This document shows positions 712 to 21,594 of a stretch of 21,594 bases of DNA, piece by piece; positions within the stretch are counted from its first letter, which is position 1, and every line of letters begins with the position of its first letter. The position numbers and the translations under genes are program-made. The DNA is from Anaerolineae bacterium. Lineage in GTDB: Bacteria; Chloroflexota; Anaerolineae; JAAYZQ01. The stretch lies in NCBI GenBank assembly GCA_016929795.1, contig JAFGIA010000025.1, positions 1 to 21,594 of the forward strand, written 5' to 3'. The notes beneath the pieces were generated by a model that had not been told where the DNA came from, searched no databases, and saw only the letters and a list, made by a program, of their open reading frames with translations.

Positions 712-3700
712 TTATTCTTGTGAGTAAGCTACACCGTATTCGTCTGCCCAATCCACGCGTGAAGGCTGTTTGGGTAGCGTGTTGGATGCGGTGACAGGAC
801 AGTAGGAGAGCCATGGCGCATCTATGTATATTTGCCTCACACAACAGTGATCTTCTAGGCACCATCTTTCTCCACAAGTGCCGCATGCGACTTCTGGAGG
901 GCACAATAGAGGTGGGCATGGTGTTACGGGACAGGGATCTGGAATGCATGTATGGCAGATTTGCTGAAAGTTTATTCGATCCCCTTCGCCAACTGGGCAG
1001 GGACCGTCTAGGCTTCCCCAATAGTTGGCGCCGAGATGGACGATTTCGCCAGGTGCGATAGCGTTGTAGGCGCCGTAAATGGAATTGCTATAGATGCAAT
1101 TGTTGAATATGGAGAGTGCGGAGTCTTCTAGCCAGAGACCATAGCTGTTGGTCGCGATGATGTTCTCACTGGCGGCGACGTCTGCCCCGTCGACTACCCT
1201 GATACCTGCTTGTGCATTGAGTGTGATTGTACTATTGCTCACGCGAACCACCGAATCACTGTCCGCAAACACAGCGCCTGTGTAGAATGTAAAGGCGCGC
1301 CCACCGCCGCTGTGGTTGATCGTGCTATGAGTCATAGTCAACATGCCGTTGGCATAAATGCTGCCACGCAGCCCGTGAATGGACGGTGGATCGTACCAGT
1401 AGTAACCACCGTAGCGGATGTTGACGTGCTCCAGATCGCCAATCCCGGTGCTGGCGATGTGAACACCTGCCCAATCGCCATTCGCAGGTACTCTTCCTGC
1501 TGAGTCATTGAGTGAGGTGAGCGTGATCGGCAAAGATGATGTGCCGTGCGCGAACAGGGTGCCAGCTATCTCCAAAGTGGTCTGGTATCCGGCAAAGTGG
1601 ATTGTGATGCCTGGATCGAGGACGAGCCTCGCCCCGTTGGCGATAGCAAAACCTCCAGACGAATATGGCAGGTCTGTTGGCAGAGATGCAGTGCCAGTCA
1701 CGGTGCCCACAAGATCGATGGCATCAGTATCATTGCCGGTCGCCATATTACCATTCAAAGATGGTCGCCCAGCAGCCATGGGCACGAAGCGCAGTTGGGC
1801 TGCAACATCCGTGTTGCTGATGAACTGCGAGTTGCTGATCGATAGCTGGCCCATGTCATCGTGCGTATAGTAAAGTCCCCAAGAATTCCCCTGAATTCGA
1901 GAGCTGGCGAGTGCGAGTGATGAAGAATAGGCCCGGATGCTTGGCTGAGCATTATACTCAATATCACTATCTGTAATATGGACCAAAGCGGCATTGTCTG
2001 CGTAGATGGCGCCTGTGTAGGATGGGAAAGCGCGACCGCCGCCACTATGACTGATTGTGCTGTGAGTCATGGTCAGCGTGCCACCGTTGGCATAGATGCT
2101 GCCACGCAGCCCACGAATCGTCGGTGGCTCGTACCAGTAGTAGCCACCGTAGCGGATATTGACATGCTCCAGGTCTGCAGTCCCGGCGCTACTAATCCGG
2201 ATGACTTCCCAGTCGCCGTTCGCAGGTACCAACCCGGTGATGTCTTTGTGTGAGGTGAGGGTGATAGGCAAAGAGGATGTGCCATGTGCGACCAGCGTGC
2301 CGGCCACTGCCAGGGTTGCTTCGTATCTGCTAAAACGGATCGTGACGCCGGGGTCGAGGGCAAGCCGAGCTCCTTCAGCCACAGCCAAGTCCGCAGACGA
2401 ATAGGGCAAATCTGATGGCAGAGATGCAGTGCCAGTAACAGTGCCCGCGAGATCCACACTGTTGGAGTTGTTGCCCGTGGCCGTGTTACCACTCAAGTCG
2501 GGCCGACCGGCAGCCATCGGCTCAAAGCGCAGCTGCGCTACAAGATCGGTGTTGCTGATGAACTGTGAGTTGGTGATCGATAGCTGATTCATGTCTTTGT
2601 GAGTGAAGTACAACCCGAGGGCATTGGCATGAATTCGCGAGTTAGCAAGTGAAAGCGACGAGGAATAGGCCCGGATGCTGGGCTGAGCGTTGTACTCAAT
2701 GTCACTGTCTGCAACGCGGACCGAGGCTGCATTATCTGCATAGATAGCACCTGTGTAGGATGTGAAGGCGCGACCGCCGCCGCTGTGGCTGATGGCGCTG
2801 TGAGCCATGGTCAGTGTGCCACCGTTGGCATAGATGCTGCCACGCAGCCCACGAATGGTCGGCGGCTCATACCAGTAATAGCCACCATAACGAATGTCAG
2901 TCTGTTGTATGTTTGTCATGCTACCGGTTCGAAGCCAGATTCCTGACCAGTCGCCGTTCGCTGGTGTAGTAGTATTTCCATCTCGGTTCGTGTCGCCTGC
3001 ATATACGTCATCTTTTATTGATGTCAGAACGATTGGTTGACAACTGCCTCCCAGGATTTGCAGCGAACCATCCACTACGAAGACGGTCTGGTTCCCGCTA
3101 ATCTTGATCACCATCGCACTCGCTGGTGCCAGCGAACTGGAACTGATGGTAAGGGTAATGCCTGGATTAACTGTAATGGAGCCCAACAACACATAGGGCA
3201 AATCCTCGTCTGAATACCATCCACCACTGATTGTGATGCTGCCTGCATCCACACGGATGCCATCTGTCCCGTTGCCATCGACTTGGTTGCCCACAAACTC
3301 TGGAAATGCCGTCCGGTCAATATAGGCAGCATAGTTGGTGTTGGATAGGATCGTGCTGGCTGCAATATCGGGACTGGACAAGCCTTCGGCCCGCAGCCCA
3401 TAGCTAACGTTCTCGCGGATCTCGTCGCCAACGATCACTGGTGATGCGTTCTTGACTCGAATTCCACTGCTACCGCTGTAGCGAACGACTGTGTTCAAAA
3501 CGTGCACGTCGTCGCTCTGAACAAAGAGGTTGCCATAGCCCTCGGTTGCCCGCCCGCCATACTCTACGACAGTGTGGCGTAGCCGGCCTGTGCTACCACT
3601 CTGGAAGATAATGCCTTTCCAGCTACCGGCTGTCGGCAGATTGGCATGGGATGTGAATGTGATGGGCATGGTGGCCGGCGTGCTGTCGCCAGCGTCGATC

Positions 3701-6510
3701 ACGCTCACGTCACCTGTTCTGGAATTTGCAGCAAAGACATCCATGGTGGGGCTAAACAGGCCGACGTCGACGGGATAGGCGCCGACAGGAAAAACGTCCT
3801 GGACAGCAAAGGTGGTGCCGTCGAGCCTGGTCACGCTGTTGGTGCGCCAGTTGGCGACGTACAGCCGGTCATTGGCGGCATCGTAACTGACACCCGACGC
3901 ACCCCCGGCTACCGGCACGGTTGCGATCACGGCATCCGTGTCGCCGTCGATCACGGAGATAGTGCTGTCGGCGTCGTTTGCCACAAAGATGCGGTTGTTT
4001 GTGGCATCCGTTTCGATCTTCCACGGGCCGTTGCCGACTGTGATCACACCTGTGACCGTCACGACCGGCGAGGTGTCAATGACCGACACCGTGCCATCAC
4101 AGTAGTTGGTGATATACGCCTGACCATTGGCGCTGTTGAAGGCAACCCACCTGGGACTGCAGCCCACCGGCAGCAGGTGGGTCGTCGTTAGCGTGGTCGC
4201 ATCCACTACGGCGACGGCCTCGTCGGCCCCGAGGGCGACAAAGATTCGACCTGTTGCCGGATCGATGTCGATCCCTGTCGGTGCGCCACCCACACGATAA
4301 TCGGCGAGTGGGGTAAGAGTATCTCGATTCAAGGCAAGGAGGTGGCCACTGCCGGCGAGTGTGACATAGATCCGGTCGCGGGGTGCATCGACAGAGACGT
4401 CGACAGGATGGTGGCCGACGGGCAGGGTGAAGAGCCGGGTGTGCGTCACCGCGCTCATGACCGACAGGGCGTCGTCGCCACTGGCCGCGACGTATACCCG
4501 CCCGGCGTCGCTGTCGACGGCCATGCCGTAGGGGCGGTGGCCTGCTACGACGTCACGACTCTGGACGCCATCCGCGATGAGTGCGCCCTCGACAAAGAGC
4601 CCGGTCCCCGACTGAAACTCAACCTGGCTGCCTGCTTCAATGGTCAGGATCGCGCTTGCCTCAACAGTGACATCGCACGTGACGATGTATGGGCTGCCCA
4701 ACAAGGGCCAGGTGGTGTGAGTGACAACGCTGCCGCACACTGGCGTCGGCCCTGTCACGGTAACCGTCACGGGGCCACCGAGGTTGTTCGTCTCGTCTTC
4801 TTCGTCAACGCCGGAGGTAGTGATGGTTGTATCTGCGTAGGCATAGAGTGGATAGTAGCCGGGCCAGCCCACGGTGTGTGTGTCGGTCAGGGTAGTGGTC
4901 ATGCCTGCTGCGAGGCTGGGCACCGTCCAACTGCCCGCGCCCTCCAGCGTGGCAGTAGGGAGAATAGAAGGATCGAGATACCAATCTGCGCGGAATGGTT
5001 CATCAGCGTCTCCTGCTCCCTGGTTGGCGAGGATCAGCTCCAGGGTGAATGTTTCTGTCGCCGTCACGGTTGTGGAGACTACGCCGACACTGTGCACGAC
5101 AAGATCCGGGTAGGTGTTGGTAATGGGCAGCGTGCAGCTCTGCGTGGCCAACAGCCAGTATCCGCGCCCGGGATCGAGGCTCAGGAGATCGCTGTCACTC
5201 TCTCCAACCTCATAGCTGGACCATGAGCCGGTGGGGATGCCGGCCTGATAGCCATAGACGGTCGAATAAAACCCATCAATCGGCGCCAGGACGTCGCTGA
5301 TAGCGCGCGTGTGGCGGATCGGAAAGCCCACCAGGTTCCAGCCCTGGTGCAGGGGGATTTCGGCGGTTAGGGGGGGCGTGCCAGTGAACGGCAGCAGGAC
5401 GTTGTCGGTGGCGTGCACCCACAGGCCCATCGTGGGGTCAATGACCGCGAGATCGTTCAAATACGTGGCTGTCCCTGGTCGGTAGCCACGCCACGGATCG
5501 TCGGGGGTGGAAGGGGCAAAGGCCAAAGCTGTGTCGTACATCCCTGCAGCCGGAGCCAACACGGACGCCAGATGCATGTCGGAGGAGAGACGGGGCCAGG
5601 CCACCAGGTTCCAGCCGGAAAGCAGGTAAATGCCTCCGGTCTGCGGGGCATAGAGCACAAAGTCATCTATGACATGATTGTTATTCAGCCCGCCCGTGGC
5701 GGCTGAAAAGCCGATCCCTGTGTAGGTATAGTCCGGGTTTGGAATGGTGTAGTTGATCACGCGACCACCGTCGATCCACACTTCGATCTGGCCTTCGTCG
5801 AAGGTGACTCTGGCATCGTGCCAGACATTGTCCTCGACACGGTTGTCGTTGACCGCCGCCAGGTGGTTGGCCGTAGTATCCTTGATCAGGCCGATGTGAC
5901 GTGCCGATGGATCGTTCTCTGTAGTGCCATAGTAGTTGTCGAATTCGATCCCATAACCCGACACCGGCCACGATTGGCCGTCGTGATAGACCTTGAACCC
6001 GAGCGTACCGCCTCCACCTGGACTGCCGTAGGCGGACTTGTCTTTGTAGAACATAAAGGTGAATCCATCGGCGCCAGAGCCGCCGCCAGCGCGGAAGCGG
6101 AACTGGGCTTCCCAGCGATGAGCCAGCAGGTCCACGTCGGCAAAGACGGCCGACGCACGCCCGTTGGTCGCCGTCGTCAAGTAGAGTACCTGCTGTGTCG
6201 GATGCCAGTATGCCTCGCTGGCGGGATCGCCGGCGGCGCGGTGGATGGTCCATTGGCCGTTGGTGTTGGGATCGGTAGCGAAATCGTCACGAAGAATGGC
6301 GGGGAGATCTTTGTCGATGCCCGATGTGTGTTGCCCGATCTCGGGCAAGGGGAGATGGCCTGTGGATGGCGGCACAGGAGGAGAAGGCTCCTGTGCATGG
6401 CCAGGGGCGGGGCAGAAACAGGATACCAGCATGCACAGCGCAAACGCCAACAAAGCGGCGGTCCACACGCCAGCAAGGCGTAGAGCTTTGGTGTTGCCCG
6501 ACAAGTTCAT
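712..6510 (-). CDS. Giant exported protein: L-type lectin, GWN module, CARDB, 7-bladed propeller, beta-helix, Cys-rich tail
   Basis: 1932 residues. Start ATG at 6510 is chosen because AAGGAG (6519-6524) lies 8 nt upstream and a signal peptide follows at once; the open frame further upstream is only a shadow of the preceding gene. The leader has a hydrophobic run at residues 12-30. It could end in a lipobox (LVSC, Cys31) or be cut after GHA (about 39). Domains: about 74-290 resembles a legume-type lectin (GADGFTFMFY, YGIEFDNYYG, HIGLI); 296-465 is a tandem GWN module; 468-588 is CARDB-like; 592-650 enters a beta-helix; 651-941 is a seven-bladed YVTN/YNCE propeller; 945 to about 1830 is right-handed beta-helix with tandem 246-residue repeats. 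The last roughly 95 residues carry about a dozen Cys in CP, CxxC and CC patterns. It is predicted to act outside the cell in adhesion or glycan binding. No catalytic site was recognised. Confidence 0.88.
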   Translation of the reverse strand: MNLSGNTKALRLAGVWTAALLAFALCMLVSCFCPAPGHAQEPSPPVPPSTGHLPLPEIGQHTSGIDKDLPAILRDDFATDPNTNGQWTIHRAAGDPASEAYWHPTQQVLYLTTATNGRASAVFADVDLLAHRWEAQFRFRAGGGSGADGFTFMFYKDKSAYGSPGGGGTLGFKVYHDGQSWPVSGYGIEFDNYYGTTENDPSARHIGLIKDTTANHLAAVNDNRVEDNVWHDARVTFDEGQIEVWIDGGRVINYTIPNPDYTYTGIGFSAATGGLNNNHVIDDFVLYAPQTGGIYLLSGWNLVAWPRLSSDMHLASVLAPAAGMYDTALAFAPSTPDDPWRGYRPGTATYLNDLAVIDPTMGLWVHATDNVLLPFTGTPPLTAEIPLHQGWNLVGFPIRHTRAISDVLAPIDGFYSTVYGYQAGIPTGSWSSYEVGESDSDLLSLDPGRGYWLLATQSCTLPITNTYPDLVVHSVGVVSTTVTATETFTLELILANQGAGDADEPFRADWYLDPSILPTATLEGAGSWTVPSLAAGMTTTLTDTHTVGWPGYYPLYAYADTTITTSGVDEEDETNNLGGPVTVTVTGPTPVCGSVVTHTTWPLLGSPYIVTCDVTVEASAILTIEAGSQVEFQSGTGLFVEGALIADGVQSRDVVAGHRPYGMAVDSDAGRVYVAASGDDALSVMSAVTHTRLFTLPVGHHPVDVSVDAPRDRIYVTLAGSGHLLALNRDTLTPLADYRVGGAPTGIDIDPATGRIFVALGADEAVAVVDATTLTTTHLLPVGCSPRWVAFNSANGQAYITNYCDGTVSVIDTSPVVTVTGVITVGNGPWKIETDATNNRIFVANDADSTISVIDGDTDAVIATVPVAGGASGVSYDAANDRLYVANWRTNSVTRLDGTTFAVQDVFPVGAYPVDVGLFSPTMDVFAANSRTGDVSVIDAGDSTPATMPITFTSHANLPTAGSWKGIIFQSGSTGRLRHTVVEYGGRATEGYGNLFVQSDDVHVLNTVVRYSGSSGIRVKNASPVIVGDEIRENVSYGLRAEGLSSPDIAASTILSNTNYAAYIDRTAFPEFVGNQVDGNGTDGIRVDAGSITISGGWYSDEDLPYVLLGSITVNPGITLTISSSSLAPASAMVIKISGNQTVFVVDGSLQILGGSCQPIVLTSIKDDVYAGDTNRDGNTTTPANGDWSGIWLRTGSMTNIQQTDIRYGGYYWYEPPTIRGLRGSIYANGGTLTMAHSAISHSGGGRAFTSYTGAIYADNAASVRVADSDIEYNAQPSIRAYSSSLSLANSRIHANALGLYFTHKDMNQLSITNSQFISNTDLVAQLRFEPMAAGRPDLSGNTATGNNSNSVDLAGTVTGTASLPSDLPYSSADLAVAEGARLALDPGVTIRFSRYEATLAVAGTLVAHGTSSLPITLTSHKDITGLVPANGDWEVIRISSAGTADLEHVNIRYGGYYWYEPPTIRGLRGSIYANGGTLTMTHSTISHSGGGRAFPSYTGAIYADNAALVHITDSDIEYNAQPSIRAYSSSLALASSRIQGNSWGLYYTHDDMGQLSISNSQFISNTDVAAQLRFVPMAAGRPSLNGNMATGNDTDAIDLVGTVTGTASLPTDLPYSSGGFAIANGARLVLDPGITIHFAGYQTTLEIAGTLFAHGTSSLPITLTSLNDSAGRVPANGDWAGVHIASTGIGDLEHVNIRYGGYYWYDPPSIHGLRGSIYANGMLTMTHSTINHSGGGRAFTFYTGAVFADSDSVVRVSNSTITLNAQAGIRVVDGADVAASENIIATNSYGLWLEDSALSIFNNCIYSNSIYGAYNAIAPGEIVHLGANYWGSLDGPCPVGEGDRINFQQICHTCIPDPCPVTPCPPLLCPPEVACGTCGERWCLEDHCCVRQIYIDAPWLSYCPVTASNTLPKQPSRVDWADEYGVAYSQE
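1189..2964 (-). repeat. Tandem 738-bp in-frame repeat, two full copies plus a partial third
   Basis: The block beginning PANGDW recurs with its start near 2964, 2226 and 1488, an exact 738-bp (246-codon) spacing. Each copy continues IRYGGYYWY(E/D)PP, GLRGSIYANG, SHSGGGRAF and YTGA(I/V)(Y/F)AD. Copies 1 and 2 run full length through the block ending (T/A)HGTSSLPITLTS. Copy 3 loses one codon (ANGMLTM instead of ANGGTLTM) and diverges after about 1190 into a capping sequence. DNA identity between copies is visibly high, which points to recent duplication by unequal recombination. In protein terms the copies lengthen a parallel beta-helix. Confidence 0.9.
3688..4560 (-). other. Seven-bladed YVTN/YNCE-type beta-propeller inserted within a beta-helix (part of the 712-6510 gene)
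   Basis: Residues 651-941 contain seven units, each with a G(H/G/C/N/A)xP turn, a (V/I)(D/S)(x)4(D/N)xx(Y/F)V core and a SV(I/M)D strand. Blade turns read GHRP, GHHP, GGAP, GCSP, GNGP, GGAS and GAYP. The sequence before it, ending LFVEGALIADG, and after it, starting MPITFTS, are halves of one typical beta-helix rung. The propeller therefore interrupts that rung. The propeller call is confident; the nested arrangement is inferred from the rung motif. Confidence 0.8.
5116..5625 (-). repeat. GWN tandem module, copy in the lectin/beta-helix protein (internal)
   Basis: Residues 296-465 hold two related halves. The first starts SGWNLVAWP and ends LWVHATD; the second starts QGWNLVGFP and ends GYWLLATQ. 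Each half has a (D)DPW or related W motif and a DL(A/L)xxDP(x)xG turn. The same two-half unit is C-terminal in the genes at 6618-9869 and 13821-19907. This copy is the most diverged: the second half has lost the DPWKEY motif (GSWSSYE instead). Confidence 0.85.
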
Positions 6511-6566
6511 AATCGATGCTCCTTCTTGTTTGACAGTGGTCCGATGGAACCGCCGCTGCGTAAGTG

Positions 6567-6621
6567 AAAAAAGAACCATCTCGATGTTGAGACACCATTG
6601 ACGATCATGGTATCGTCTCAA
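6567..6621 (-). promoter_or_regulatory. Intercistronic hairpin with a distal U-run (weak terminator or attenuator)
   Basis: The arms TTGAGAC and GTCTCAA (6587-6593 and 6615-6621) pair perfectly. An inner ACCAT/ATGGT stem with a 3-nt bulge extends the hairpin, which overlaps the TGA of the upstream gene (6618-6620). On the minus strand a run of six U follows, but 14 nt beyond the stem, too far for a strong intrinsic terminator. Partial termination or mRNA protection between the two genes is possible. Confidence 0.35.
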
Positions 6622-9869: not shown

Positions 9870-9900
9870 AGTAGCAATCCTTTCTAGTTCAACAAACTGA

Positions 9901-11886: not shown

Positions 11887-11940
11887 TCTTCCCTCCTAAA
11901 AAGATGATGGTGGCTGCACAATTGGGTCCGTTTCATCCGG

Positions 11941-13722: not shown

Positions 13723-13770
13723 CTGATATACCTCCTCTGTCAAACTGCCGCAGGGATGTTTTTGTTCTCT

Positions 13771-13810
13771 GGAGCAGCCGAGGTGGCCTGTCTGCCGCCT
13801 CGGCTGCTCC
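13771..13810 (-). other. Strong intercistronic hairpin (13-bp perfect stem, extendable to 17)
   Basis: GGAGCAGCCGAGG (13771-13783) pairs perfectly with CCTCGGCTGCTCC (13798-13810). A G-T pair and GGC/GCC extend it to 17 bp with a 6-nt CTGTCT loop. It lies 10 nt after the TAG of the giant C39 gene. The downstream minus-strand sequence is AGAGAACAAAAAC, not U-rich, so it is not a standard intrinsic terminator. It may protect the 3' end of a processed mRNA or act in Rho-independent pausing between very unequal genes. Confidence 0.6.
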
Positions 13811-13820
13811 GCTCGATGTT

Positions 13821-16800
13821 CTACTGTGGAACCAGCCAGGTACAATCTTCGGTCACATAGATCCAGTAGCCGCGCTCTGGCTCGATCATTGCCAGGTCGT
13901 TGGCATAGGCCGGGGCGTCGACGTTGTATTCCTTCCACGGATCGGCAGCGTCGGTGGGATCGTAGGTCTGGATGCGCGTGAACTTGCCAGCGATCGACGC
14001 CAACGCTTCTTCCACAGTGTGGGGCACCGGCGACGGGTAGCCGACCAGGTTCCAGCCCTGGCGCAGCTCGACCGCCGCGCCGGCAGGGTACCAGCCGGAG
14101 AGCGTGAGCGTCACCGGCTCGGTGGCGTGCAGCCACAGCCCTGCCGTCTCGTCGACCTCTGCCAGGTCGCCAGGCCACTCCTTCCACGGATCGGTGCTGT
14201 CCCAAGCGTCATATGTCCACGCCGCGTCGCACGTTCCTCCCAACAGAGAGAGGGTGTCGGTGAGGTTCGTCGAGACGGGCGCCAGCGGCCACGAGATGAG
14301 ATTCCAGCCCGGCGCCAGGGCCAGCTCGCTCGACAGGAGCTGCGCGCCGGCGTAGGCGGGGTATGGCTCGCTGGCGTTGCCCACGCTGTCCTCTACCTGC
14401 ACCCAGACGACCTCGCGCTCGTCAAAGGTCCAGGTGACGACCTCGGTGTAGGCCAGAGTGACGACGCCTTCGATCATGAGCGGGTCGTTGCTCAGGTAGA
14501 CTGTCGCGACGTCGACGAGCTCGTCGTAGGCCAGGACGGTGACCGCGCGCGTCAGCGTGTCGCCGGGTGCGACTTTGGCGTACACCAGTGGTGGCGTCGT
14601 ATCGACGACGAACGTATCGCTGGTGGTCTCGGACACATTGCCCGACACGTCGCGGTATTGGGCGTAAAGCACGCCTTCGGTTTCCGTCGTGAGCGAGATG
14701 GGCAGGGCGAGGGTCCAGGTGTACGGCTGCCACACGGCATCGGCCAGTGTGGGATCCTGCCCAACGCGCATGTCGGCGACGCCGCTCAGGTCGTCGATCG
14801 CGCCAAAGTAGGCGGTGACGGTCAGGAATGCCGGCCCGACGATCTGGTCGCCGAGGGCGATGCCGCCCAGGGGCGGCGTGGTATCGACCATGATGCTGGC
14901 ATCGGCTGGCTCTGAGATGTTGCCCGCATTGTCGCGGAAGCGGACGTGCAGGGTCTTGATGCCATCCTCGCCGTCAAAGGTAAGTGGCACGATGGCGGCA
15001 TAGGGCTCCCATTCGGTGCCTACAAAATCTGGATACTCGCTCACCTGGATGCCTTCCAGCCCGCTGCTGTCGTCGTTGGCGCTGAGATAGAGGTCAACCG
15101 TGTCCTCGTTGATCACGTGCAGCGTCACCGACCCCTTCTCGCCTTCCACTTCTATTGTGGCACCTTGTGCCTGCTGGGTGCCGGTCAGCAGCTCCGTCAG
15201 GTCGAATACGGCCTCGCCGCCCCACGCGTTCGGGTCATAGACGATGTCGTCGACGAAATCACCATAGACAGCGCCCGAGCTGTCCTTGAAGCGCGCGTGC
15301 ACAAAGCGGGGCTGCACCGACGTGCCGCTGATCTGGAGCGTCCAGGAGATGGTCTGAGTGTAGGGCTGCCACACGGTGGCGCTGAACTCGCCTGTGTTGC
15401 TGAGCATCACCTCGACCGGGTCAGGCCCGCACAGGGTGAGGGTCACTTCCGGCGAGTTGGTGAAGGGGGCGTCGTCGTTGATCTCGACGCTGTAGAATTC
15501 ACACTCCGGCTCCGGCGCAGGCGGCGGCGGGGGTGGGGGTGGGGGTGGCTGGAGGTCGTAGCCGGTACCCCCCCAGAAGCCGGAGAGCATGACATAGTTG
15601 GTGCTGGTGATGGTGCGCACGTGAGCGGGCTGGCCGAGGGTGCCCCACATCTTGTGGTCGGACGACTGCAAGGCGGTGGCACCCGTGCCGCCACCGGCCA
15701 TCACAGAGCCTGTTTGCGTGTAGGTGATGTAGGTTGGCTGGACCACCGGCGCGGCCTGCGCCCCTGCTTCAAAGCCCGTCTGCAGGAGGTAGTTGGGGCT
15801 CGCCGCGACCTGGGTGTTTGTCGACTGTCCGACGGTCGCGTGCGCATTGTAGTTTGTCGACGTGATCACTCCGCTGCCGGAGGCCATCTGGTTGTTCCAC
15901 AGCCAGTAGTTGTCCGATTGGGGGCGTGGTGGGTTGACGTCGAGATAGACGGTGTCGGACACGACGCTGGACAGGTTCCCGGCGGCATCCGCCACCTGCA
16001 GGTAGACGGTGTGGGTGCGCCGGCCGAGGGCCGGGATCTGCCACAGGGTCTCGGTCAGGATATCTGTCCAGTCGGCCCAGCGGCTGCCGTCGTTCGACAG
16101 CCGCATCTGCACCACGCCGCTGCCTTCATCATCACTCAGGATGCTGAGGTGGATATCTGTTTGGTGAGTGACAGTCAAGCCATAGTTGGCGATCACGGTT
16201 GCTGTCGGTGGGGCGCCGTCGTAGGCGAGGGCATAGTCGACCCATGGCGACTGCCAGCCGACGTTGTCCTGGGAGCGCGCTCGGAGATAGTAGACCTGGG
16301 CTTCGTCCTCGGCGCAGATGGGTGTGGAGTAGACAAAGCCGGGCTCAACGCGCAGGGTGTCGCTGATGCCCGCGGGCTCGGGCCCCCAGTAGACGTGGTA
16401 GCCGGCGATGCCGGAGCCCTCGTCTACAACCTCAGGCCAGGAGAAATCGGCGGTGCGCACCTGGTTTTGCCACACGCCGCTGGCGACTTGGTCGTTGTTG
16501 TGCACAGCAGGCGAGCGGGGTGGCGTGCCATCGTATTTGAAGGTAAAGAGCGCGCCCGTTGGCCCGACGTGGCCCGCCCAGTCGACGGCGCGAGCGCTGA
16601 GCTGGTAGGTACCGGTGCGCACGGCAGGCGGGTCATAGGCGGCAGTGGTGACGACCTGGAGCGTGCCGTTCCAATCGACCCGGTAGTAGCGGACGCCCGA
16701 CGTGGCGTCGGTCGCCGGCACCCAGGTGAACGCCGGGTCGCTCCAGTCGCGCTGCCACTCGTCCGAGACGGCGCCGTGCGTCTCTGTCACAGTGCCGGGC

Positions 16801-19800
16801 GCGCCCGGCGGCGTGGCATCGATCTTGAAGGTCGCCTGGCGCGTCGCTTCCTGGTTGCCCACCTTGTCCCTGGCATAGTACTCGACGGTGTGGGTGCCAT
16901 CGCTGCTGACGGGGAAGTTCGTGTCGGCGCCGGTGCGTGTCTGCCACGCCCCACCATCGAGGCGGTAGTGGATCTCTTTGACGCCAGCGCGGGCGTGGCC
17001 AGTGGCCTGGTCGCTCGCTTGCAGCCGTACCTGGACAGGCACGGTGGGGAACCACGTGGGCCATTTTGCCGCGTTGGTGGCGCCGTTCAGTGCCAGAGTC
17101 GTGATCGGGGGCTGCAAGTCGATGCGCAGATTGAGGTGCTGGCTGGGGGTGACGGCGCCGTCGTCGTCGTAGGCACGAAAGTGGATGTCGTTGCGGCCGG
17201 CCATGCTGCTCCTCGTGTGGGTCCAGGTGTTCAACCCGCTCTGACTGGTGTAGGAGCCGCAGCCGTCGCCTGTGCAGCGGTACTCGATCTTGGTCACCTG
17301 CCCGTCGGAATCGGCAGCCGTGCCCGCGAACGTCCACCCTCGCACGTTGCTGTCGATGGATCGGGAAGAGGGGATGGCGCTGCCGTTGGCCGTGGTGAAG
17401 GCGATGGATGGCGGCTGGTTGGGCGGCTCGATGGAGAAGGTGCGTGTGGCGCTCCAACCGCTCTGCGCCTGGCGGGGCAGGTCGCGTGCCTTGACGTGCC
17501 AGTTGTAGGTGTGGTAATCACCGTCGAGTGAAGCGGGCCGCCAGCACGTTTCATGGATCCAGCCGCTGTTGGCGTTCACCGGGCTGTTGTATACCTCGGC
17601 ATAGTACTCGACCTCGTTGCCTTCGGGGTCGACCGCGCGGTTCCAGCAGAGGGTAGGGGCCTTGCCATCCTGAGCCACGTAGCCGTTCGCGGGACTGCTG
17701 GGGCTGGGCTTGGCAGGGGCCGAGTTGTGACCACAATCGGGGACATTGTAGACGCGGAAGGAGGTGATGTTGTCGTTGAGGGTCACGCCGTTGTTGAAAT
17801 AGTCGCCCCAGAAATTGGGGTCATCCCCGCTGCGGCAGGCCGATCCGCCAGTACCGTTTTCGTGTTGATAGAGCTTGACCGACCAGCCGGCCGGGACGCG
17901 GACAGAGGAAGCCTGATCGTTAAAGTCGGCGCCGACGTCGTTGTAGACTCCCGGGTTGTCGAGGCGCACGTAGCCAGAGCCATACTCGCCGCCGCCGCAG
18001 TCATAATTCTCGTGTTTGAAGAGGATGACGCCGCCGCTGGATGGGCAGGTGGGCGGATTCTGAGGGGGATTGCAGCCGTCGAACTCGATCCCTGATTCGT
18101 TGGCTGCCCGTACTGCGCAATAGGTGTTGGCTTCCAGGAAGATAGGGAGTGCGATGGCTATCTTGTTGGCTTTGACGTTCACCGTGCGGATGCCTGCTTT
18201 GTATCCTTCGGCCGTCGCCCACACCCTGGCACTGCCGGCCGGTACGCCAGGCAGCAGGTAGGCTGCAATCTCGTTTGTCTTGACCCATGGTGCGCCTCCG
18301 CCTGAAAGAGTCCTTACCCAGGCATCAGGAACAAGATCAAAAGGTGGATCCATCACAATGCCAAAGATCGAGCCGGTCCTCTTACCTTGGCAACGTGGGT
18401 TGTCAAAGACCTCGATCGAAGACACGTTGTCGTTAATCGCAACCTGAGTTCCTGGAAAGGTGCCAAGAGTAGAAAAGTCGTTGACATCGACATTTAGGCA
18501 AGCACTCGCTCCTGTTTGATCCGCATGCTCGAAAAGTAGCACGGACCAACCTGAACGGACTAGGAGTGCGGATGCTCGATCGTTGAGTTCCGCAGATATG
18601 TTCTCTGGCCCTACACTGTCCCGCCAGAAAGGTTTTGTATCTTCACAGCCCCAAATCGCGTGCTCGAAGAGTGTGACACCATGCATCGGGCATTCGATAT
18701 CTTCGTCGGGTTTGTATCTTCGAGTGCTGACGATAGATGTCGAGGGGAGTTGGGTCCTCGACCCGGCTGGATCGTTAACATAGTACGTATCTCGGTCCAC
18801 TCTTCCAGTAACGACGAGGAAATGCCCGCCGATGGAGGCAATGACCGGCCGGCATTTTCGAAGATCACAGTCGATCTTGGCCTCGGTTCCTGAGCCAACG
18901 TAAGATAGCCCGGCGGGTCCACATGACGAGGCGGCCGTTGACCAAATAATGTCGCACCCCGAGTAGCCTCCATTACTCCGCAGACAAGTGTTCAGTATCT
19001 TGGGATCTGTTGCCGCACCATAGAAGCTAAATACCATGGCTGCAGAAGTCATTGCGCATCCAGCGCCACAAATAGTGTATGAGCAAGCCCCAGGCGCCCC
19101 CAAAGTCAAACTCCCCCACCGTGAATCACATTGCAGAAAAGTGGGAACTGAGAGCGGCGGGATCTCGGTATCAGGACCGCTGAGGATTGAGTCAAAGCCA
19201 ACACTTCTGGTAAATGCCCCAAAGGTCAGCGAGTCCACAATCAGCAAGAACACTTTTTCGTGTTCAGCGCTCAGAATATCATTGGGATTGTCAGCAGTGC
19301 TAAAGCTAATCTCAAAGATCTGCTCTTCAACGGAAACAAAGAAATGATATCCCGAGTGGTCTAGTTCATCTATGGTCAAGACCAGGGCTGGCTGCTGGCC
19401 TACCACTGCCTCGCGTTGATCCAGCACGGACCACTGAGGGAATTCGCCTTGTTCGCCTGGCTCTGCCCCGGACTCGATATATCTTTCCACCCAGTCTGAT
19501 AGCCCCAGAGCCTGCGGGTTATTATATGGACGAACTCGGAAGGGCAATGCACCATCTGGCAGGGTGATGAGCAAGATGCCTTCGAGGTCGTAGCGTTGTG
19601 CGGTCGCTTCTGGTGGATATTTCAAGGAGTAGCCATAATCTGCGTCTCGCAGTTCGATCCAGTCAGATATGGGTTGTGTCCTTACTTGTGTAGGAGCCTC
19701 TGGCTCAAGTGCTGTGCGTCTCAGGCTTCCTTGCAGCGTATCTGCCAAACTCTTGCCTTGGATTTGAGCAGAGGATATGACTGTGTTTTCATCATCCAGC

Positions 19801-19907
19801 CTATCGAATGCAGCCAACTCGGGTCCAGTATTCGCAGTGCTGCCTCCCACCGGTAGCAGTATGCCAAAGACAAATATCAAGCTAATCAGCCTACGTACTT
19901 TGTTCAT
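13821..19907 (-). CDS. Giant exported C39-like cysteine peptidase with beta/gamma-crystallin, Ig-like and GWN domains
   Basis: 2028 residues. An ATG at 19913 is in frame, but the GGAG at 19915-19918 is only 1 nt from it and 7 nt from the ATG at 19907, so 19907 (MNKVRRLIS) is preferred. A signal peptide spans residues 1-25. Residues 85-230 resemble a PsbP-like domain (YGYSLKYPPEA). Residues 254-400 are C39-like: Cys284 in GAGCAMTSAAMV, His362 in GGHFLVVTG and Asp379 in VNDPAG form a plausible catalytic triad. Two beta/gamma-crystallin domains (407-504, 622-725) carry calcium-type motifs NDNVSS, NDQASS and NDNITS; the fourth (NDRASA) is imperfect. Between them, 509-592 resembles a carboxypeptidase-regulatory-like domain. 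Residues 729-1450 and 1470-1860 are FnIII/Ig-like, joined by a ten-proline linker (1454-1463). A GWN module ends the protein. It shares its architecture with the CHAP protein and is probably extracellular; its substrate is unknown. Confidence 0.88.
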   Translation of the reverse strand: MNKVRRLISLIFVFGILLPVGGSTANTGPELAAFDRLDDENTVISSAQIQGKSLADTLQGSLRRTALEPEAPTQVRTQPISDWIELRDADYGYSLKYPPEATAQRYDLEGILLITLPDGALPFRVRPYNNPQALGLSDWVERYIESGAEPGEQGEFPQWSVLDQREAVVGQQPALVLTIDELDHSGYHFFVSVEEQIFEISFSTADNPNDILSAEHEKVFLLIVDSLTFGAFTRSVGFDSILSGPDTEIPPLSVPTFLQCDSRWGSLTLGAPGACSYTICGAGCAMTSAAMVFSFYGAATDPKILNTCLRSNGGYSGCDIIWSTAASSCGPAGLSYVGSGTEAKIDCDLRKCRPVIASIGGHFLVVTGRVDRDTYYVNDPAGSRTQLPSTSIVSTRRYKPDEDIECPMHGVTLFEHAIWGCEDTKPFWRDSVGPENISAELNDRASALLVRSGWSVLLFEHADQTGASACLNVDVNDFSTLGTFPGTQVAINDNVSSIEVFDNPRCQGKRTGSIFGIVMDPPFDLVPDAWVRTLSGGGAPWVKTNEIAAYLLPGVPAGSARVWATAEGYKAGIRTVNVKANKIAIALPIFLEANTYCAVRAANESGIEFDGCNPPQNPPTCPSSGGVILFKHENYDCGGGEYGSGYVRLDNPGVYNDVGADFNDQASSVRVPAGWSVKLYQHENGTGGSACRSGDDPNFWGDYFNNGVTLNDNITSFRVYNVPDCGHNSAPAKPSPSSPANGYVAQDGKAPTLCWNRAVDPEGNEVEYYAEVYNSPVNANSGWIHETCWRPASLDGDYHTYNWHVKARDLPRQAQSGWSATRTFSIEPPNQPPSIAFTTANGSAIPSSRSIDSNVRGWTFAGTAADSDGQVTKIEYRCTGDGCGSYTSQSGLNTWTHTRSSMAGRNDIHFRAYDDDGAVTPSQHLNLRIDLQPPITTLALNGATNAAKWPTWFPTVPVQVRLQASDQATGHARAGVKEIHYRLDGGAWQTRTGADTNFPVSSDGTHTVEYYARDKVGNQEATRQATFKIDATPPGAPGTVTETHGAVSDEWQRDWSDPAFTWVPATDATSGVRYYRVDWNGTLQVVTTAAYDPPAVRTGTYQLSARAVDWAGHVGPTGALFTFKYDGTPPRSPAVHNNDQVASGVWQNQVRTADFSWPEVVDEGSGIAGYHVYWGPEPAGISDTLRVEPGFVYSTPICAEDEAQVYYLRARSQDNVGWQSPWVDYALAYDGAPPTATVIANYGLTVTHQTDIHLSILSDDEGSGVVQMRLSNDGSRWADWTDILTETLWQIPALGRRTHTVYLQVADAAGNLSSVVSDTVYLDVNPPRPQSDNYWLWNNQMASGSGVITSTNYNAHATVGQSTNTQVAASPNYLLQTGFEAGAQAAPVVQPTYITYTQTGSVMAGGGTGATALQSSDHKMWGTLGQPAHVRTITSTNYVMLSGFWGGTGYDLQPPPPPPPPPPAPEPECEFYSVEINDDAPFTNSPEVTLTLCGPDPVEVMLSNTGEFSATVWQPYTQTISWTLQISGTSVQPRFVHARFKDSSGAVYGDFVDDIVYDPNAWGGEAVFDLTELLTGTQQAQGATIEVEGEKGSVTLHVINEDTVDLYLSANDDSSGLEGIQVSEYPDFVGTEWEPYAAIVPLTFDGEDGIKTLHVRFRDNAGNISEPADASIMVDTTPPLGGIALGDQIVGPAFLTVTAYFGAIDDLSGVADMRVGQDPTLADAVWQPYTWTLALPISLTTETEGVLYAQYRDVSGNVSETTSDTFVVDTTPPLVYAKVAPGDTLTRAVTVLAYDELVDVATVYLSNDPLMIEGVVTLAYTEVVTWTFDEREVVWVQVEDSVGNASEPYPAYAGAQLLSSELALAPGWNLISWPLAPVSTNLTDTLSLLGGTCDAAWTYDAWDSTDPWKEWPGDLAEVDETAGLWLHATEPVTLTLSGWYPAGAAVELRQGWNLVGYPSPVPHTVEEALASIAGKFTRIQTYDPTDAADPWKEYNVDAPAYANDLAMIEPERGYWIYVTEDCTWLVPQ
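13824..14324 (-). repeat. GWN tandem module, C-terminal copy in the C39 protein
   Basis: Residues 1862-2028 read PGWNLISWPLAP ... TDPWKEWPGD ... GLWLHATEP and then QGWNLVGYPSPV ... ADPWKEYNVD ... GYWIYVTED, ending 4 residues before the stop. It is the closest relative of the copy at 6621-7127, alignable in DNA over nearly the whole unit. This suggests copying within the cluster rather than ancient divergence. Confidence 0.9.
15529..15552 (+). other. G-quadruplex-prone tract encoding a polyproline linker on the other strand
   Basis: The plus strand has three runs of five G separated by single T, then two GG runs, within 24 bases. On the minus strand these are CCC codons for a ten-proline stretch (residues 1454-1463 of the C39 protein). 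Such a run could form a G4 on the template strand and could slow translation. The protein linker is the likely reason for the sequence. Confidence 0.45.
17733..18689 (-). other. Pair of beta/gamma-crystallin domains separated by a regulatory-like domain (part of the C39 gene)
   Basis: Residues 407-504 and 622-725 each contain two Greek-key motifs starting V(T/I)LF(E/K)H and S(V)xL(F/Y)(E/Q)H. Each key ends in a calcium-binding type motif (N/D)DxxSS or close to it: NDRASA, NDNVSS, NDQASS and NDNITS. The first has Ala in place of the second Ser, which usually weakens binding. The segment 509-592 between them reads SIFGIVMDPPFDLVPDAWV then LPGVPAGSARVWATAEGY, a carboxypeptidase-regulatory-like fold. 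Calcium binding is predicted from motif only. Confidence 0.75.
18708..19148 (-). other. C39-like papain-fold peptidase domain (part of the 13821-19907 gene)
   Basis: Residues 254-400 begin VPTFLQCDSRW, a common opening of peptidase_C39_2 domains, followed by GAGCAMTSAAMVFSFYG (Cys284), GGHFLVVTG (His362) and YYVNDPAG (Asp379). Several other Cys (275, 280, 308, 318, 329, 347, 352) suggest disulfides in an extracellular setting. Most members in this fold are secreted peptidases or isopeptidases. The triad is placed by motif, not by structure. Confidence 0.72.
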
Positions 19908-20006
19908 GGGCATTCTCCATCAACCTCTGGACTGTTCCTCTCGTCGAGCGGTCAACTGCTTACTGAGAAGTAGCCGACCTTCAGCTGCTCCTTTGCTATG
20001 ATAGGC

Positions 20007-20023
20007 GCCAAAGCCGCTTTGGC
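20007..20023 (-). other. Small intercistronic hairpin
   Basis: GCCAAAG and CTTTGGC form a perfect 7-bp stem with a 3-nt loop, 6 nt beyond the TAG of the fibre-like gene on the minus strand. No U-tract follows, so it is unlikely to be a strong terminator. It may mark the 3' end of a processed transcript. Confidence 0.35.
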
Positions 20024-20029
20024 AGAGTG

Positions 20030-21313
20030 CTAATCGCCAATCGCCAGCCACATGAAACACCACGTGCCGATGGCATCACTGATAACCCGAAAGCCTGTTG
20101 TGGTTTTCGCGGAAGTACCAGCAAGCGCAGCAGCGTGCATTCCCCCCGATCCACTGGTCCAGTTTTGTGTCAGGAAAACGTGATAGTTTGTGTTCGCAAA
20201 TGACTCTGGCAACGTGATGTCAGCATAATAGAATCCGCCGGACAAGGTGGTCCCGATACAACCTGTTCCGTATTGGATCTCGCGACTGTCACCATTAACC
20301 GATCGGATCAAAGAAGGGGCGTGCGTATGCGTGACGGCTCCACTTGCCAGCTCGCTGCCCGTGACTGAATTGGCCGCCAAGTCATCGGCAGTCAGCGAAT
20401 TGTTATACACTTCACTGCTGCGCACCGAACCCTCACCCAAGTCGCTGTTGGTAAGGCTGTTGTCGGACACTTCGCTGCTGCCGACAGAACCGGCAGCCAG
20501 GTCGCTGGCAGTCAGCGAGTTGTCGGACACTTCGCTGCTGCCGACCGAGCCGGCAGCCAGGTCGGTGGCGGTGAGCGAGTTATCCGCTACTTCGCTGGAC
20601 CCGACCGCCCCTGCCGCAACTTCGCTACTGCCGACCGAGTCGGCCGCCAGATCGGCTGCAGTGAGGGAGTTGTCCGCCACTTCGTCGCTGCCTACGGCGC
20701 CGGTCGGGATCTTGGCGCTGGTAACTGCATCGTTGGCCAGCTTGGCCGTGGTGATGCTGCCGTCGGGCACGGTCAGCGCCTGCATCGAAAAGGGCACGCT
20801 GCCCAACTGCACGCGCGGCACCATCTCACTGTCGGCGCCGACCGTGATGCCCAGGTAGAGCTCGTCGTGTCCCTGGATGACGCCGGCCAGAGAGGAATTG
20901 ATGCTGCCCAGCATGACGTTGAACAGCCCGTCGGACACCTCCACGGCATTGCCGCCCGTCCAGAACTCTTCCCAGAGGTAGGCGGTGGTAAGGGGGTCGG
21001 GGTAGATGCGGAACTCCATGTTGTAGACGCCGGTGAGGGGATTGCCCGTCGAATCGGCCAGCCGTCCCTGGTAGCTAATGGTGGTGGTCGAGGGGGCCTG
21101 GATGCCGGCGTGCTGGGCCAGTGAGGGCACTGTGAACAACAGCGCGACAACCACCAGGATGGTGCCGATGTTGGGCACCATCTGCCGGACCATCCAGCCG
21201 CGCCAATTCCGTCCACGTGCCGGCTCCTGCTCGGCCGCGCCTTGCTGCCGCGCGGCGCGATATCCATCCAACGTTTCGCCCAATCGTGTAACCAAACCTT
21301 TTTGCTCGTTCAT
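20030..21313 (-). CDS. Signal-anchored fibre-like protein with SYQGRL domain and 20-residue S-E-V/N-S-L-T repeats
   Basis: 427 residues. Frame and ATG at 21352 exist, but ATG 21313 is preferred because GAGGAG (21322-21327) lies 8 nt upstream. The N-terminus is about 45 hydrophilic residues, then a hydrophobic stretch at about 47-66 (NIGTILVVVALLFTVPSLAQ). This is either a long signal peptide cut near SLAQ or a signal anchor. Residues 77-180 are the SYQGRL domain seen in the two paralogous fibre genes. Residues 206-325 are a tandem 20-residue repeat (EVxDNSLTxxDLAAGSVGSS), an extended, probably beta-solenoid or stalk-like shaft. The last roughly 90 residues (FANTNYHVFLTQNW ... MWLAIGD) resemble C-terminal domains of tail-fibre-like proteins. 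It lacks the C-terminal domain of its paralogues. Likely an exported fibre whose base stays in the membrane. Confidence 0.85.
   Translation of the reverse strand: MNEQKGLVTRLGETLDGYRAARQQGAAEQEPARGRNWRGWMVRQMVPNIGTILVVVALLFTVPSLAQHAGIQAPSTTTISYQGRLADSTGNPLTGVYNMEFRIYPDPLTTAYLWEEFWTGGNAVEVSDGLFNVMLGSINSSLAGVIQGHDELYLGITVGADSEMVPRVQLGSVPFSMQALTVPDGSITTAKLANDAVTSAKIPTGAVGSDEVADNSLTAADLAADSVGSSEVAAGAVGSSEVADNSLTATDLAAGSVGSSEVSDNSLTASDLAAGSVGSSEVSDNSLTNSDLGEGSVRSSEVYNNSLTADDLAANSVTGSELASGAVTHTHAPSLIRSVNGDSREIQYGTGCIGTTLSGGFYYADITLPESFANTNYHVFLTQNWTSGSGGMHAAALAGTSAKTTTGFRVISDAIGTWCFMWLAIGD
20339..20698 (-). repeat. 60-bp tandem repeat encoding a 20-residue stalk unit
   Basis: About six copies of a 60-bp unit lie head to tail, most clearly 20461-20520 and 20521-20580, which differ at only a few bases. 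The outer copies are more diverged. The encoded unit is SVGSSEVxDNSLTAxDLAAG with changes such as DLGEG and SVRSS. The middle copies are most alike, as expected of recent slippage or unequal crossover. Copy number could vary between strains. Confidence 0.85.
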
Positions 21314-21402
21314 GGTGTTATCTCCTCTTTGTATTCCATAAAATTTCGTCATCTTGGTTTTGACGGCCTGTGAGCCCGCGCGCGGACTGTCGCGCCTGAT
21401 TC

Positions 21403-21420
21403 CACATGTCGCGCCATGTG
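21403..21420 (-). other. Short palindrome just past the stop of the partial gene
   Basis: CACATG and CATGTG pair around a 6-nt loop immediately after the TGA at 21422-21424, read on the minus strand. No U-tract follows. The stem is short, so a terminator role is unlikely. Confidence 0.2.
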
Positions 21421-21421
21421 C

Positions 21422-21594
21422 TCAATGGCGCGTGACGATGGGCAGATAGTGCCGGAAAATCGAATCGGGCAGGGAGACGGGCCCGTGGAGCGTGCGGGCG
21501 TCGTGGTTGTCGACGCCTTCGAGCCAGTAGTAGTAGGTCGTGCCTTCTTGCGCCGTCTCGTCGAGAAAATCGTAGGCTGCCCCCGCCGGGCTGC
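21422..21594 (-). CDS. C-terminal end of a secreted protein with YLPIV tail (partial)
   Basis: The minus-strand frame is open from the window edge to the TGA at 21422-21424 and encodes about 56 residues. It reads AYDFLDETAQEGTTYYYWLE, GVDNHDARTLHGPV and ends DSIFRHYLPIVTRH. TYYYWLEGVD then a HGPV turn is the usual last strand pair of FnIII-like domains in large secreted proteins. From memory, short C-terminal or linker segments of the YLPLV kind are frequent in exported proteins of Chloroflexota. The gene lies upstream of and on the same strand as the operon, 108 bp before the next start, so it is probably the preceding cistron. Its main domains and function are outside the window. Confidence 0.7.
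   Translation of the reverse strand, partial: SPAGAAYDFLDETAQEGTTYYYWLEGVDNHDARTLHGPVSLPDSIFRHYLPIVTRH

What the first reader, a model, noticed from the sequence alone, without database searches (positions are those of the whole stretch)
712..21594. Seven-gene minus-strand cluster of exported fibres and giant multi-domain proteins
All seven cistrons are on one strand, with gaps of 31-122 bp. All six with a visible N-terminus have an export signal, and the seventh has a secreted-type tail. Three are fibre-like, two are cysteine hydrolases and one is a lectin/propeller/beta-helix protein. Modules are shared across them. This looks like the parts list of one extracellular assembly not matching any system I know. 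It could serve adhesion, filament sheath, predation or wall remodelling.
Basis: inference. Interest (0 to 1): 0.72.

Follow-up and report, generated by a model that had tools for sequence, protein, structure and literature searches.

The report
Surface fibres paired with wall-cutting enzymes
The stretch holds two copies of an apparently undescribed two-part unit, found in many Chloroflexota bacteria, that pairs exported fibres with a secreted partner protein carrying an exchangeable enzyme, here of cell-wall-cutting type.

Summary
In detail: seven same-strand genes, gaps 31-116 nt. The reading "one seven-part assembly" does not. Relatives split the cluster into two conserved units, F-E and D-C-B; A is not conserved with them. 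Each unit is fibre gene(s) followed by a secreted protein bearing a ~52-residue module ("SGFW") that no Pfam model matches (0 of 21 members). In 400 Chloroflexota genomes fibres occur in 36, SGFW in 43, both in 33. Of 89 SGFW ORFs in 96 loci plus the window, 72 have a fibre ORF adjacent on the same strand, none on the opposite. The two genes diverge in parallel. The partner is ~100 aa or carries an exchangeable domain: M23, CHAP, C39-like, amidase, others. F has an H-type-lectin/pyocin-like tip by model. The fibres resemble Bdellovibrio MAT adhesins but score below that model's cut-off. Best reading: SGFW docks an enzyme or anchor to the fibre base, so wall hydrolases act where the fibre binds. 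Linkage is shown; docking and target are inferred.

The parts
21422..21592 (-). G, 3' end of an upstream gene; last 56 aa end in ...HYLPIVTRH, as many SGFW-class partners do
   Evidence: 49% identical over 55 aa to the C-terminus of an SGFW protein in L156; Pfam none
20030..21313 (-). F, fibre class 1: ~45-aa leader + membrane segment, beta-sandwich N-domain, repeat shaft, H-type-lectin-like tip
20786..21088 (-). F N-domain (residues 76-176), distantly related to Bdello_MAT_N
   Evidence: E 4.8e-8, 33 bits, cut-off 60; 10-residue block means of pLDDT 87-97 for residues 81-170
20033..20323 (-). F tip domain (residues 331-427), phage/pyocin fibre-tip and H-type lectin fold by model
13821..19913 (-). 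E, secreted partner: N-terminal domain, C39-like peptidase, crystallin-type, Ig/OmpL47-type, two SGFW modules, GWNLI repeats
18765..19151 (-). E: Peptidase_C39_2 domain with conserved Cys/His/Asp
   Evidence: 28.5 bits, cut-off 24; alignment
15573..15923 (-). E: two SGFW modules (residues 1331-1382 and 1393-1447)
13771..13810 (-). 13-bp-stem RNA hairpin between E and D; no U-run
   Evidence: z -6.8; 0 of 200 shuffles as stable
11941..13722 (-). D, fibre class 2: N-domain, GIGT shaft, C-terminal knob ending GLIKAMIRKM
9901..11886 (-). C, fibre class 2: N-domain, GIGT shaft similar to Bdellovibrio Bd2133, knob ending GLIKAMIRKW
   Evidence: (8ond_A E 1.3e-12)
6618..9869 (-). B, secreted partner: N-terminal domain, CHAP amidase/peptidase, Ig-type modules, one SGFW module, GWNLI repeats
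8832..9071 (-). B: CHAP domain with Cys/His motifs
   Evidence: (48.9 bits, cut-off 26)
7179..7334 (-). B: SGFW module (residues 846-897)
712..6510 (-). A, secreted lectin/CARDB/propeller/beta-helix protein; neighbour, not part of the conserved unit

Best explanation
The window carries two tandem copies of a conserved unit: exported fibre gene(s) followed by a secreted partner that contains the SGFW module. SHOWN: the linkage and order, the parallel divergence of the two genes, the variable fibre ends, the exchangeable enzyme in the partner, and (by model) the lectin-like tip of F. INFERRED: the fibres are trimers; the SGFW module binds the conserved N-terminal base domain of its own fibre; the partner, which usually carries the C-terminal YLPLV-type tail that fibres lack, holds the fibre at the cell surface. 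In the minimal form (~100 aa) the partner is only an anchor. In the form seen here it also carries a hydrolase of wall-cutting type (CHAP in B, C39-like in E), so the fibre brings the enzyme to glycan-bearing surfaces. The likeliest use is attack on, or scavenging of, other bacterial cells or their remains.
For: Linkage: 33 of 36 fibre-positive genomes among 400 also have SGFW, against 10 of 364 others. Leaving out the 12 genomes that gave seeds to the SGFW profile (my count) it is 21 of 24 (Fisher). 42 of 52 fibre-bearing contigs have SGFW downstream on the same strand within 6 kb, 0 on the opposite strand. 72 of 89 SGFW ORFs have an adjacent same-strand fibre ORF, 0 opposite. Upstream adjacency is 69 of 89 for SGFW ORFs against 194 of 5683 for other ORFs of the same loci. 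Parallel divergence: Mantel rho 0.68 over 68 pairs, 0.59 over 52 non-redundant pairs, 0.39 among 10 pairs of one genome (37 of 2000 permutations reach it). Payload: 14 loci with a long B/E-like partner were scanned (L001-L003, L072-L080, L082, L113); 12 carry a wall-hydrolase-type domain at E below 1e-3: M23 in 8, C39_2 in 2, CHAP in 1, Amidase_3 in 1; 9 of the 12 pass Pfam's cut-off. Tip fold. Tail: 65 of 89 SGFW ORFs, 2 of 102 fibre ORFs, 237 of 5683 others.
Against: No binding was shown; adjacency and co-divergence also follow from co-inheritance. The SGFW model is poor (pLDDT 62), so no fold supports docking. Window partners B and E lack the YLPLV tail. Many partners are too small to carry an enzyme, and some payloads are not wall hydrolases (C13 peptidase L153, CAP L157, metallophosphoesterase L113). 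L073 has no enzyme call at E below 0.05. The M23 domains of L003 and L074 were missed in whole-protein scans and found only on the trimmed N-terminal piece. 17 of 89 SGFW ORFs have no adjacent fibre; 7 of these lie within 900 nt of a contig edge. A promoter-like site in the F-E gap leaves open that E is transcribed apart from F. Nothing here shows that the target is a foreign cell. Enzymatic activity is untested, and C39-like domains need not cut peptidoglycan.
Confidence: 0.45

Rival explanations
1. The hydrolases work on the producer's own wall: they open it locally so that a long exported fibre can pass or be anchored, as lytic transglycosylases do for conjugation and flagellar machines. 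No foreign target is involved.
For: Hydrolase genes sit directly behind fibre genes. L001-L003 partners have M23 plus a downstream region with a lysozyme-like 'KESS/QESS' motif (the motif reading is mine, no model called it), a pairing known from secretion machines (recalled).
Against: Many fibre loci have only a ~100-aa partner, too small for an enzyme, so a hydrolase is not generally needed for export. Payloads also include C13, CAP and phosphoesterase domains. A lectin-like tip on F points outward.
Confidence: 0.22
2. The fibre-SGFW pair is a surface adhesion or biofilm/filament-sheath system. The enzymes are processing or matrix-remodelling domains unrelated to killing or feeding.
For: Many partners are minimal; SGFW proteins can carry cohesin/dockerin and Ig modules; C39-like and C13 domains can be protein-processing (recalled).
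Against: Among long B/E-like partners the payload is a wall-hydrolase type in 12 of 14 loci scanned.
Confidence: 0.25
3. The fibres are recently captured phage or tailocin parts, and the neighbours are unrelated secreted proteins.
For: PHROG tail-fibre hits to shafts of C, D and F; the F tip resembles phage and pyocin tips.
Against: N-terminal export segments; no relative found by a two-peptide-pattern scan of viral contigs or by tblastn of one F relative against phage records; PHROG hits of the six proteins are fibre-type or of unknown function, with one 'virion structural' hit to F's repeats; strict linkage to SGFW.
Confidence: 0.04
4. SGFW and fibre are linked only because both sit in exported-protein islands of these genomes.
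For: Other secreted proteins with YLPLV tails occur nearby.
Against: Fixed order and strand, 0 opposite-strand cases, and 69 of 89 against 194 of 5683 other ORFs in the same loci.
Confidence: 0.04

Closest known systems
Mosaic adhesive trimer (MAT) fibres of Bdellovibrio bacteriovorus (Caulton et al. 2024, PMC10769870; abstract, found passages, sections 10 and 16 seen)
   Same: Export signal, conserved beta-rich base domain after it, fibre shaft, exchangeable tips including lectin-type folds; C's shaft matches solved Bd2133 and the N-domain weakly matches NF053851.
   Different: All N-domain matches lie below the family cut-off; no S74 domain was called; a linked SGFW/hydrolase partner is not mentioned in the parts that I saw, and the paper says that the surface element bound by the N-domain awaits identification.
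CPR-type pilus protein PamT (NCBIfam NF058579)
   Same: 8 of 21 SGFW members match it (best E 3.4e-6); for B the match is to model positions 23-80.
   Different: B's match is 19.5 bits against a cut-off of 240; two paper searches with the name PamT found nothing on it, so its function gives no support.
Phage and R-pyocin tail fibres
   Same: Tip fold of F and shaft repeats.
   Different: N-terminal export segments; no viral relatives found in the searches run.
Cohesin-dockerin cellulosome (recalled)
   Same: The idea of enzymes docked on an extracellular scaffold by a small module.
   Different: SGFW matches no Pfam model and no PDB sequence; here the scaffold would be the fibre.
Polymorphic toxins / secreted lysins with a constant carrier and exchangeable catalytic domain (recalled)
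   Same: B/E chassis shared, catalytic domain differs among M23, CHAP, C39_2 and amidase.
   Different: No immunity gene was looked for; the catalytic domain is N-terminal; the fibre linkage is a feature of its own.

Membership tests
MAT superfamily (Bdello_MAT_N, NF053851) | N-terminal domain scoring over the curated cut-off (60 bits) | tested here: not met
   F 33.0, D 18.6, C 14.4 bits; 0 of 400 genomes over the cut-off, 9 of 400 at E <= 1e-3
MAT superfamily (Bdello_MAT_N, NF053851) | Conserved beta-rich domain (~130 aa) right after the signal peptide | tested here: met
   F: about 100 residues (76-176) after the membrane segment modelled as a beta-sandwich, confident for 81-170, with invariant positions in F plus 45 relatives; C and D share it by sequence
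MAT superfamily (Bdello_MAT_N, NF053851) | Trimeric beta-prism shaft | tested here: inconclusive
   C shaft matches 8ond_A, best stretch residues 497-534, E 1.3e-12; no trimer was modelled
MAT superfamily (Bdello_MAT_N, NF053851) | Exchangeable C-terminal ends on a common base | tested here: met
   F tip H-lectin-like by model; C/D share another C-terminal sequence, not modelled
MAT superfamily (Bdello_MAT_N, NF053851) | Surface display and prey or glycan binding | not testable with these tools
   needs experiment
CHAP-type hydrolases (PF05257), protein B | Domain over the Pfam cut-off with Cys/His | tested here: met
   48.9 bits against 26; GNC and NGH motifs starting at residues 269 and 327; their catalytic role is recalled
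C39-like peptidases (PF13529), protein E | Domain over the Pfam cut-off with Cys/His/Asp | tested here: met
   28.5 bits against 24; Cys, His and Asp columns shared with L078 and L080; their catalytic role is recalled
Peptidoglycan hydrolases | Cleaves peptidoglycan | not testable with these tools
   activity assay needed
CPR-type pilus protein PamT (NF058579) | Score over 240 bits | tested here: not met
   B 19.5 bits as a whole protein; 8 of 21 SGFW segments match, best E 3.4e-6
Phage tail fibre | Lies in a phage genome | tested here: inconclusive
   no relative found in viral contigs by two peptide patterns or in phage records with one F relative; the window's genome is not held

The most novel reading that the evidence does not exclude
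Fibre N-domain plus SGFW is a general bacterial docking pair, the unidentified surface partner of MAT-type fibres. Chloroflexota use it as a plug-in system in which any enzyme fused to SGFW is mounted at the base of a lectin-tipped fibre, giving contact-targeted lysins for killing or digesting other cells.
Probability: 0.2. Interest if true: 0.87.

Novelty: new variant of a known kind. Interest (0 to 1): 0.62.

Why it matters
If right, a large unnamed protein family (1822 F relatives among 7991 candidates scored; where a listed one of the best 120 has a name it is 'hypothetical protein', and where it has an organism it is Chloroflexi or Anaerolineae) gets a unit, a partner and a testable role. 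It offers a concrete candidate for the question, left open in the MAT paper, of what holds such fibres on the cell. It also gives a way to find fibre-linked enzymes by one short module, and a molecular route by which uncultured Chloroflexota could attack or recycle other cells.

Tried and rejected
One seven-gene assembly: rejected, because A is unlinked and the two units lie on separate contigs in G001. Pieces of A do lie on the same contigs as SGFW sites in a few cases, the nearest about 7 kb away (G001 contig C494).

MAT membership: not claimed.

Phage origin: no support; plasmids: no match. Searches used one F relative (P0012), not F itself; one search scanned by two short peptide patterns.

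SGFW fold: AlphaFold model too poor to search, so no fold search was run with it. SGFW and fibre profiles find no PDB sequence relative.

A clean rule 'F-type fibre goes with two SGFW modules, C/D-type with one': not kept. It holds for the six E-like partners (E, L077, L078, L080, L081, L082, though L078's second copy is lost in the stricter scan) and for B, L001, L002, L003 and L072, but L074 and L079 have F-like N-domains and one SGFW.

Promoter and terminator scans (window 7001-9799 not scanned): terminator-like sites 4 against 4.4 and 7 against 7.8 expected; promoter-like sites 2 against 3.2 and 9 against 3.6 expected. Only 2 of these 11 promoter-like sites are on the minus strand, one of them in the F-E gap (20025-19998).

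Chassis search (B residues 660-905): 37 proteins with varied domains, among them M23, C39_2 and subtilisin-type (names of accessions recalled); used only as support for payload exchange.

Literature: one search listed three papers with the MAT term; two searches found no paper, one irrelevant paper each; some searches gave listings on predation, Herpetosiphon and other topics (seen as listings only). That this pair is undescribed rests and on the NCBIfam and Pfam scans; most subscription journals are not covered.

Bias: A4 seeds came from fibre-centred loci. I therefore repeated the genome test without the 12 seed genomes (21 of 24) and the locus test on non-seed loci (50 of 69 SGFW ORFs paired upstream) and SGFW-selected loci (25 of 41). 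In one search at most three candidates per genome were scored, so 36 of 400 is a lower bound. Genomes are related, so p-values overstate independence. Signal peptides were judged by hydrophobicity only.

Full report
WHAT IS THERE. Six complete genes and one gene end lie on the minus strand. I name them in transcription order: G (end only), F, E, D, C, B, A. F, D and C are fibre proteins; E and B are large secreted modular proteins with a cysteine-hydrolase domain; A is a lectin/CARDB/propeller/beta-helix protein. C and D are 43% identical over the alignment, most alike in the N-domain and the C-terminal knob. B and E share a similar N-terminal region, Ig-type, SGFW and GWNLI modules although their catalytic domains differ. 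The closest relatives found are Chloroflexi/Anaerolineae (titles; the few organism names).

NEIGHBOURHOODS. The one scan of genome contigs, with C and D as query, gave three loci, all Chloroflexi/Anaerolineae. In all three the fibre gene(s) are followed at once on the same strand by a B-like protein, but with an M23 peptidase in place of CHAP (L003's M23 only in the trimmed scan). Genome G001 also has an F-type fibre followed by an E-like protein (60% identical over the shared part) on another contig. So the window joins two units that stand apart elsewhere: F-E and D-C-B. Protein A has only scattered module matches, in 8 of 17 fibre-bearing genomes; none is adjacent to a fibre unit except the GWNLI module of L001's B-like partner.

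THE SGFW MODULE. Reading the partners showed one short module in common, consensus PxSxxYxLxxxVxxxGGGxxxSxxYxLxGTxGQxxxxGxxxSxxYxxxxGFW, once in B and twice in E. No Pfam model matches any of 21 members and no PDB sequence matches the profile. NCBIfam's PamT model matches 8 of 21 weakly. In many loci the whole partner is only ~90-150 aa: signal segment, SGFW, and a YLPLV-type tail.

LINKAGE IN NUMBERS. Of 400 Chloroflexota genomes, 36 match the fibre profile (64 places), 43 match SGFW (98 places) and 33 both; the three fibre-only genomes are G073, G086 and G170. Of 52 contigs with a fibre place, 42 have SGFW downstream on the same strand within 6 kb; of the other 10, two have it close by on the same strand but upstream and eight have none on the contig; none has it on the opposite strand. 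Because SGFW seeds came from fibre loci, I repeated the test on the 24 fibre genomes that gave no seed: 21 have SGFW, against 10 of 364 others. In 96 loci plus the window there are 89 SGFW ORFs: 72 have a fibre ORF next to them on the same strand (66 nearest upstream, 6 nearest downstream), none on the opposite strand, and 17 have none (7 of these within 900 nt of a contig edge). Counted as upstream neighbours only, it is 69 of 89, against 194 of 5683 other ORFs in the same loci; for the 41 SGFW ORFs in loci chosen by SGFW alone it is 25. Fibre N-domain and SGFW distances correlate: rho 0.68 (68 pairs), 0.59 (52 non-redundant), 0.39 within one genome (10 pairs; 37 of 2000 permutations as high). 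The six E-like partners have two SGFW modules and F-like fibres, but F-like N-domains also occur with single-SGFW partners (L074, L079).

PAYLOADS. Fifteen loci have a long B/E-like partner by BLAST (L001-L003, L072-L082, L113); 14 were scanned and L081, near-identical to L080, was not. They carry M23 (L001, L002, L003, L072, L074, L075, L077, L082), C39_2 (L078, L080), CHAP (L079), Amidase_3 (L076) or a phosphoesterase (L113); L073 has no call at E below 0.05. Three of the 12 wall-hydrolase-type calls (L072, L074, L078) are below Pfam's cut-off, and those of L003 and L074 appear only on trimmed pieces. The window has C39_2 in E and CHAP in B. L076 is cut by its contig end before any SGFW module; it is included because its chassis is B-like. 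Other SGFW proteins carry a CAP domain (L157), a C13 peptidase (L153) or no known domain. The chassis of B is joined to yet other domains in the protein database.

MECHANISM. The strict pairing suggests a physical partner. The tail distribution (65 of 89 partners, 2 of 102 fibres) suggests that the partner, not the fibre, carries a retention signal. In the window the partners instead end in GWNLI repeats and carry a hydrolase. I therefore propose: partner retained at or near the surface; SGFW bound to the fibre base; fibre tip binding glycans; hydrolase acting at the contact. Binding, retention, activity and target are not shown. Own-wall opening for fibre passage is the main mechanistic rival. 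Enzyme-free partners and non-wall payloads speak against it, but they also weaken a purely lytic reading.

TRANSCRIPTION. The E-D gap holds a 13-bp-stem hairpin (z -6.8; the other five gaps z -2.2 to +1.8). It has no U-run, so I call it a boundary candidate, not a terminator. A promoter-like site lies in the F-E gap, so E may also be transcribed by itself.

VERDICT. Observation confirmed. Interpretation partly supported: two conserved units, not one seven-part machine. The unit seems undescribed in what I could search. It is a new variant of a known kind (mosaic surface fibres), with a categorically new docking system as an open possibility.

Noticed in passing
C-termini of many ORFs in fetched loci, e.g. 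L114 and L092; window G at 21422-21592: A C-terminal YLPLV(L/I)R-type tail ends 65 of 89 SGFW ORFs but 2 of 102 fibres and 237 of 5683 other ORFs; it could be an unrecognised sorting or retention signal of Chloroflexota.
   Followed up: partly
A, B and E: e.g. B residues 905-1083, E 1862-2030, A 290-466: A double 'GWNLISWP...GYWIYV' module is shared by three window proteins and by L001's partner, and takes the place of the YLPLV tail at the ends of B and E.
   Followed up: partly
window 13771-13810: Very stable hairpin in the E-D gap without a U-run.
   Followed up: partly
F residues 1-66, and 45 relatives: Conserved N-terminal leader before the membrane segment in F-type fibres (PNxGT...), like an extended signal peptide.
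   Followed up: no
L107, L110, L111, L117, L127, L132: A second fibre class next to SGFW genes; its ORFs end in a short RR-rich tail (e.g. GWLLGRRSAKGQR), and L111's shows GGG..NN-type repeats.
   Followed up: partly
A residues 28-31 (LVSC), in the signal segment: A's signal region holds a possible lipobox (LVSC, motif recalled) besides a normal-looking cleavage site, so A may be a lipoprotein.
   Followed up: no
P0205: An SGFW-type protein whose C-terminus looks dockerin-like by eye is named as from a Methanophagales archaeon, so the module may not be limited to Chloroflexota.
   Followed up: no
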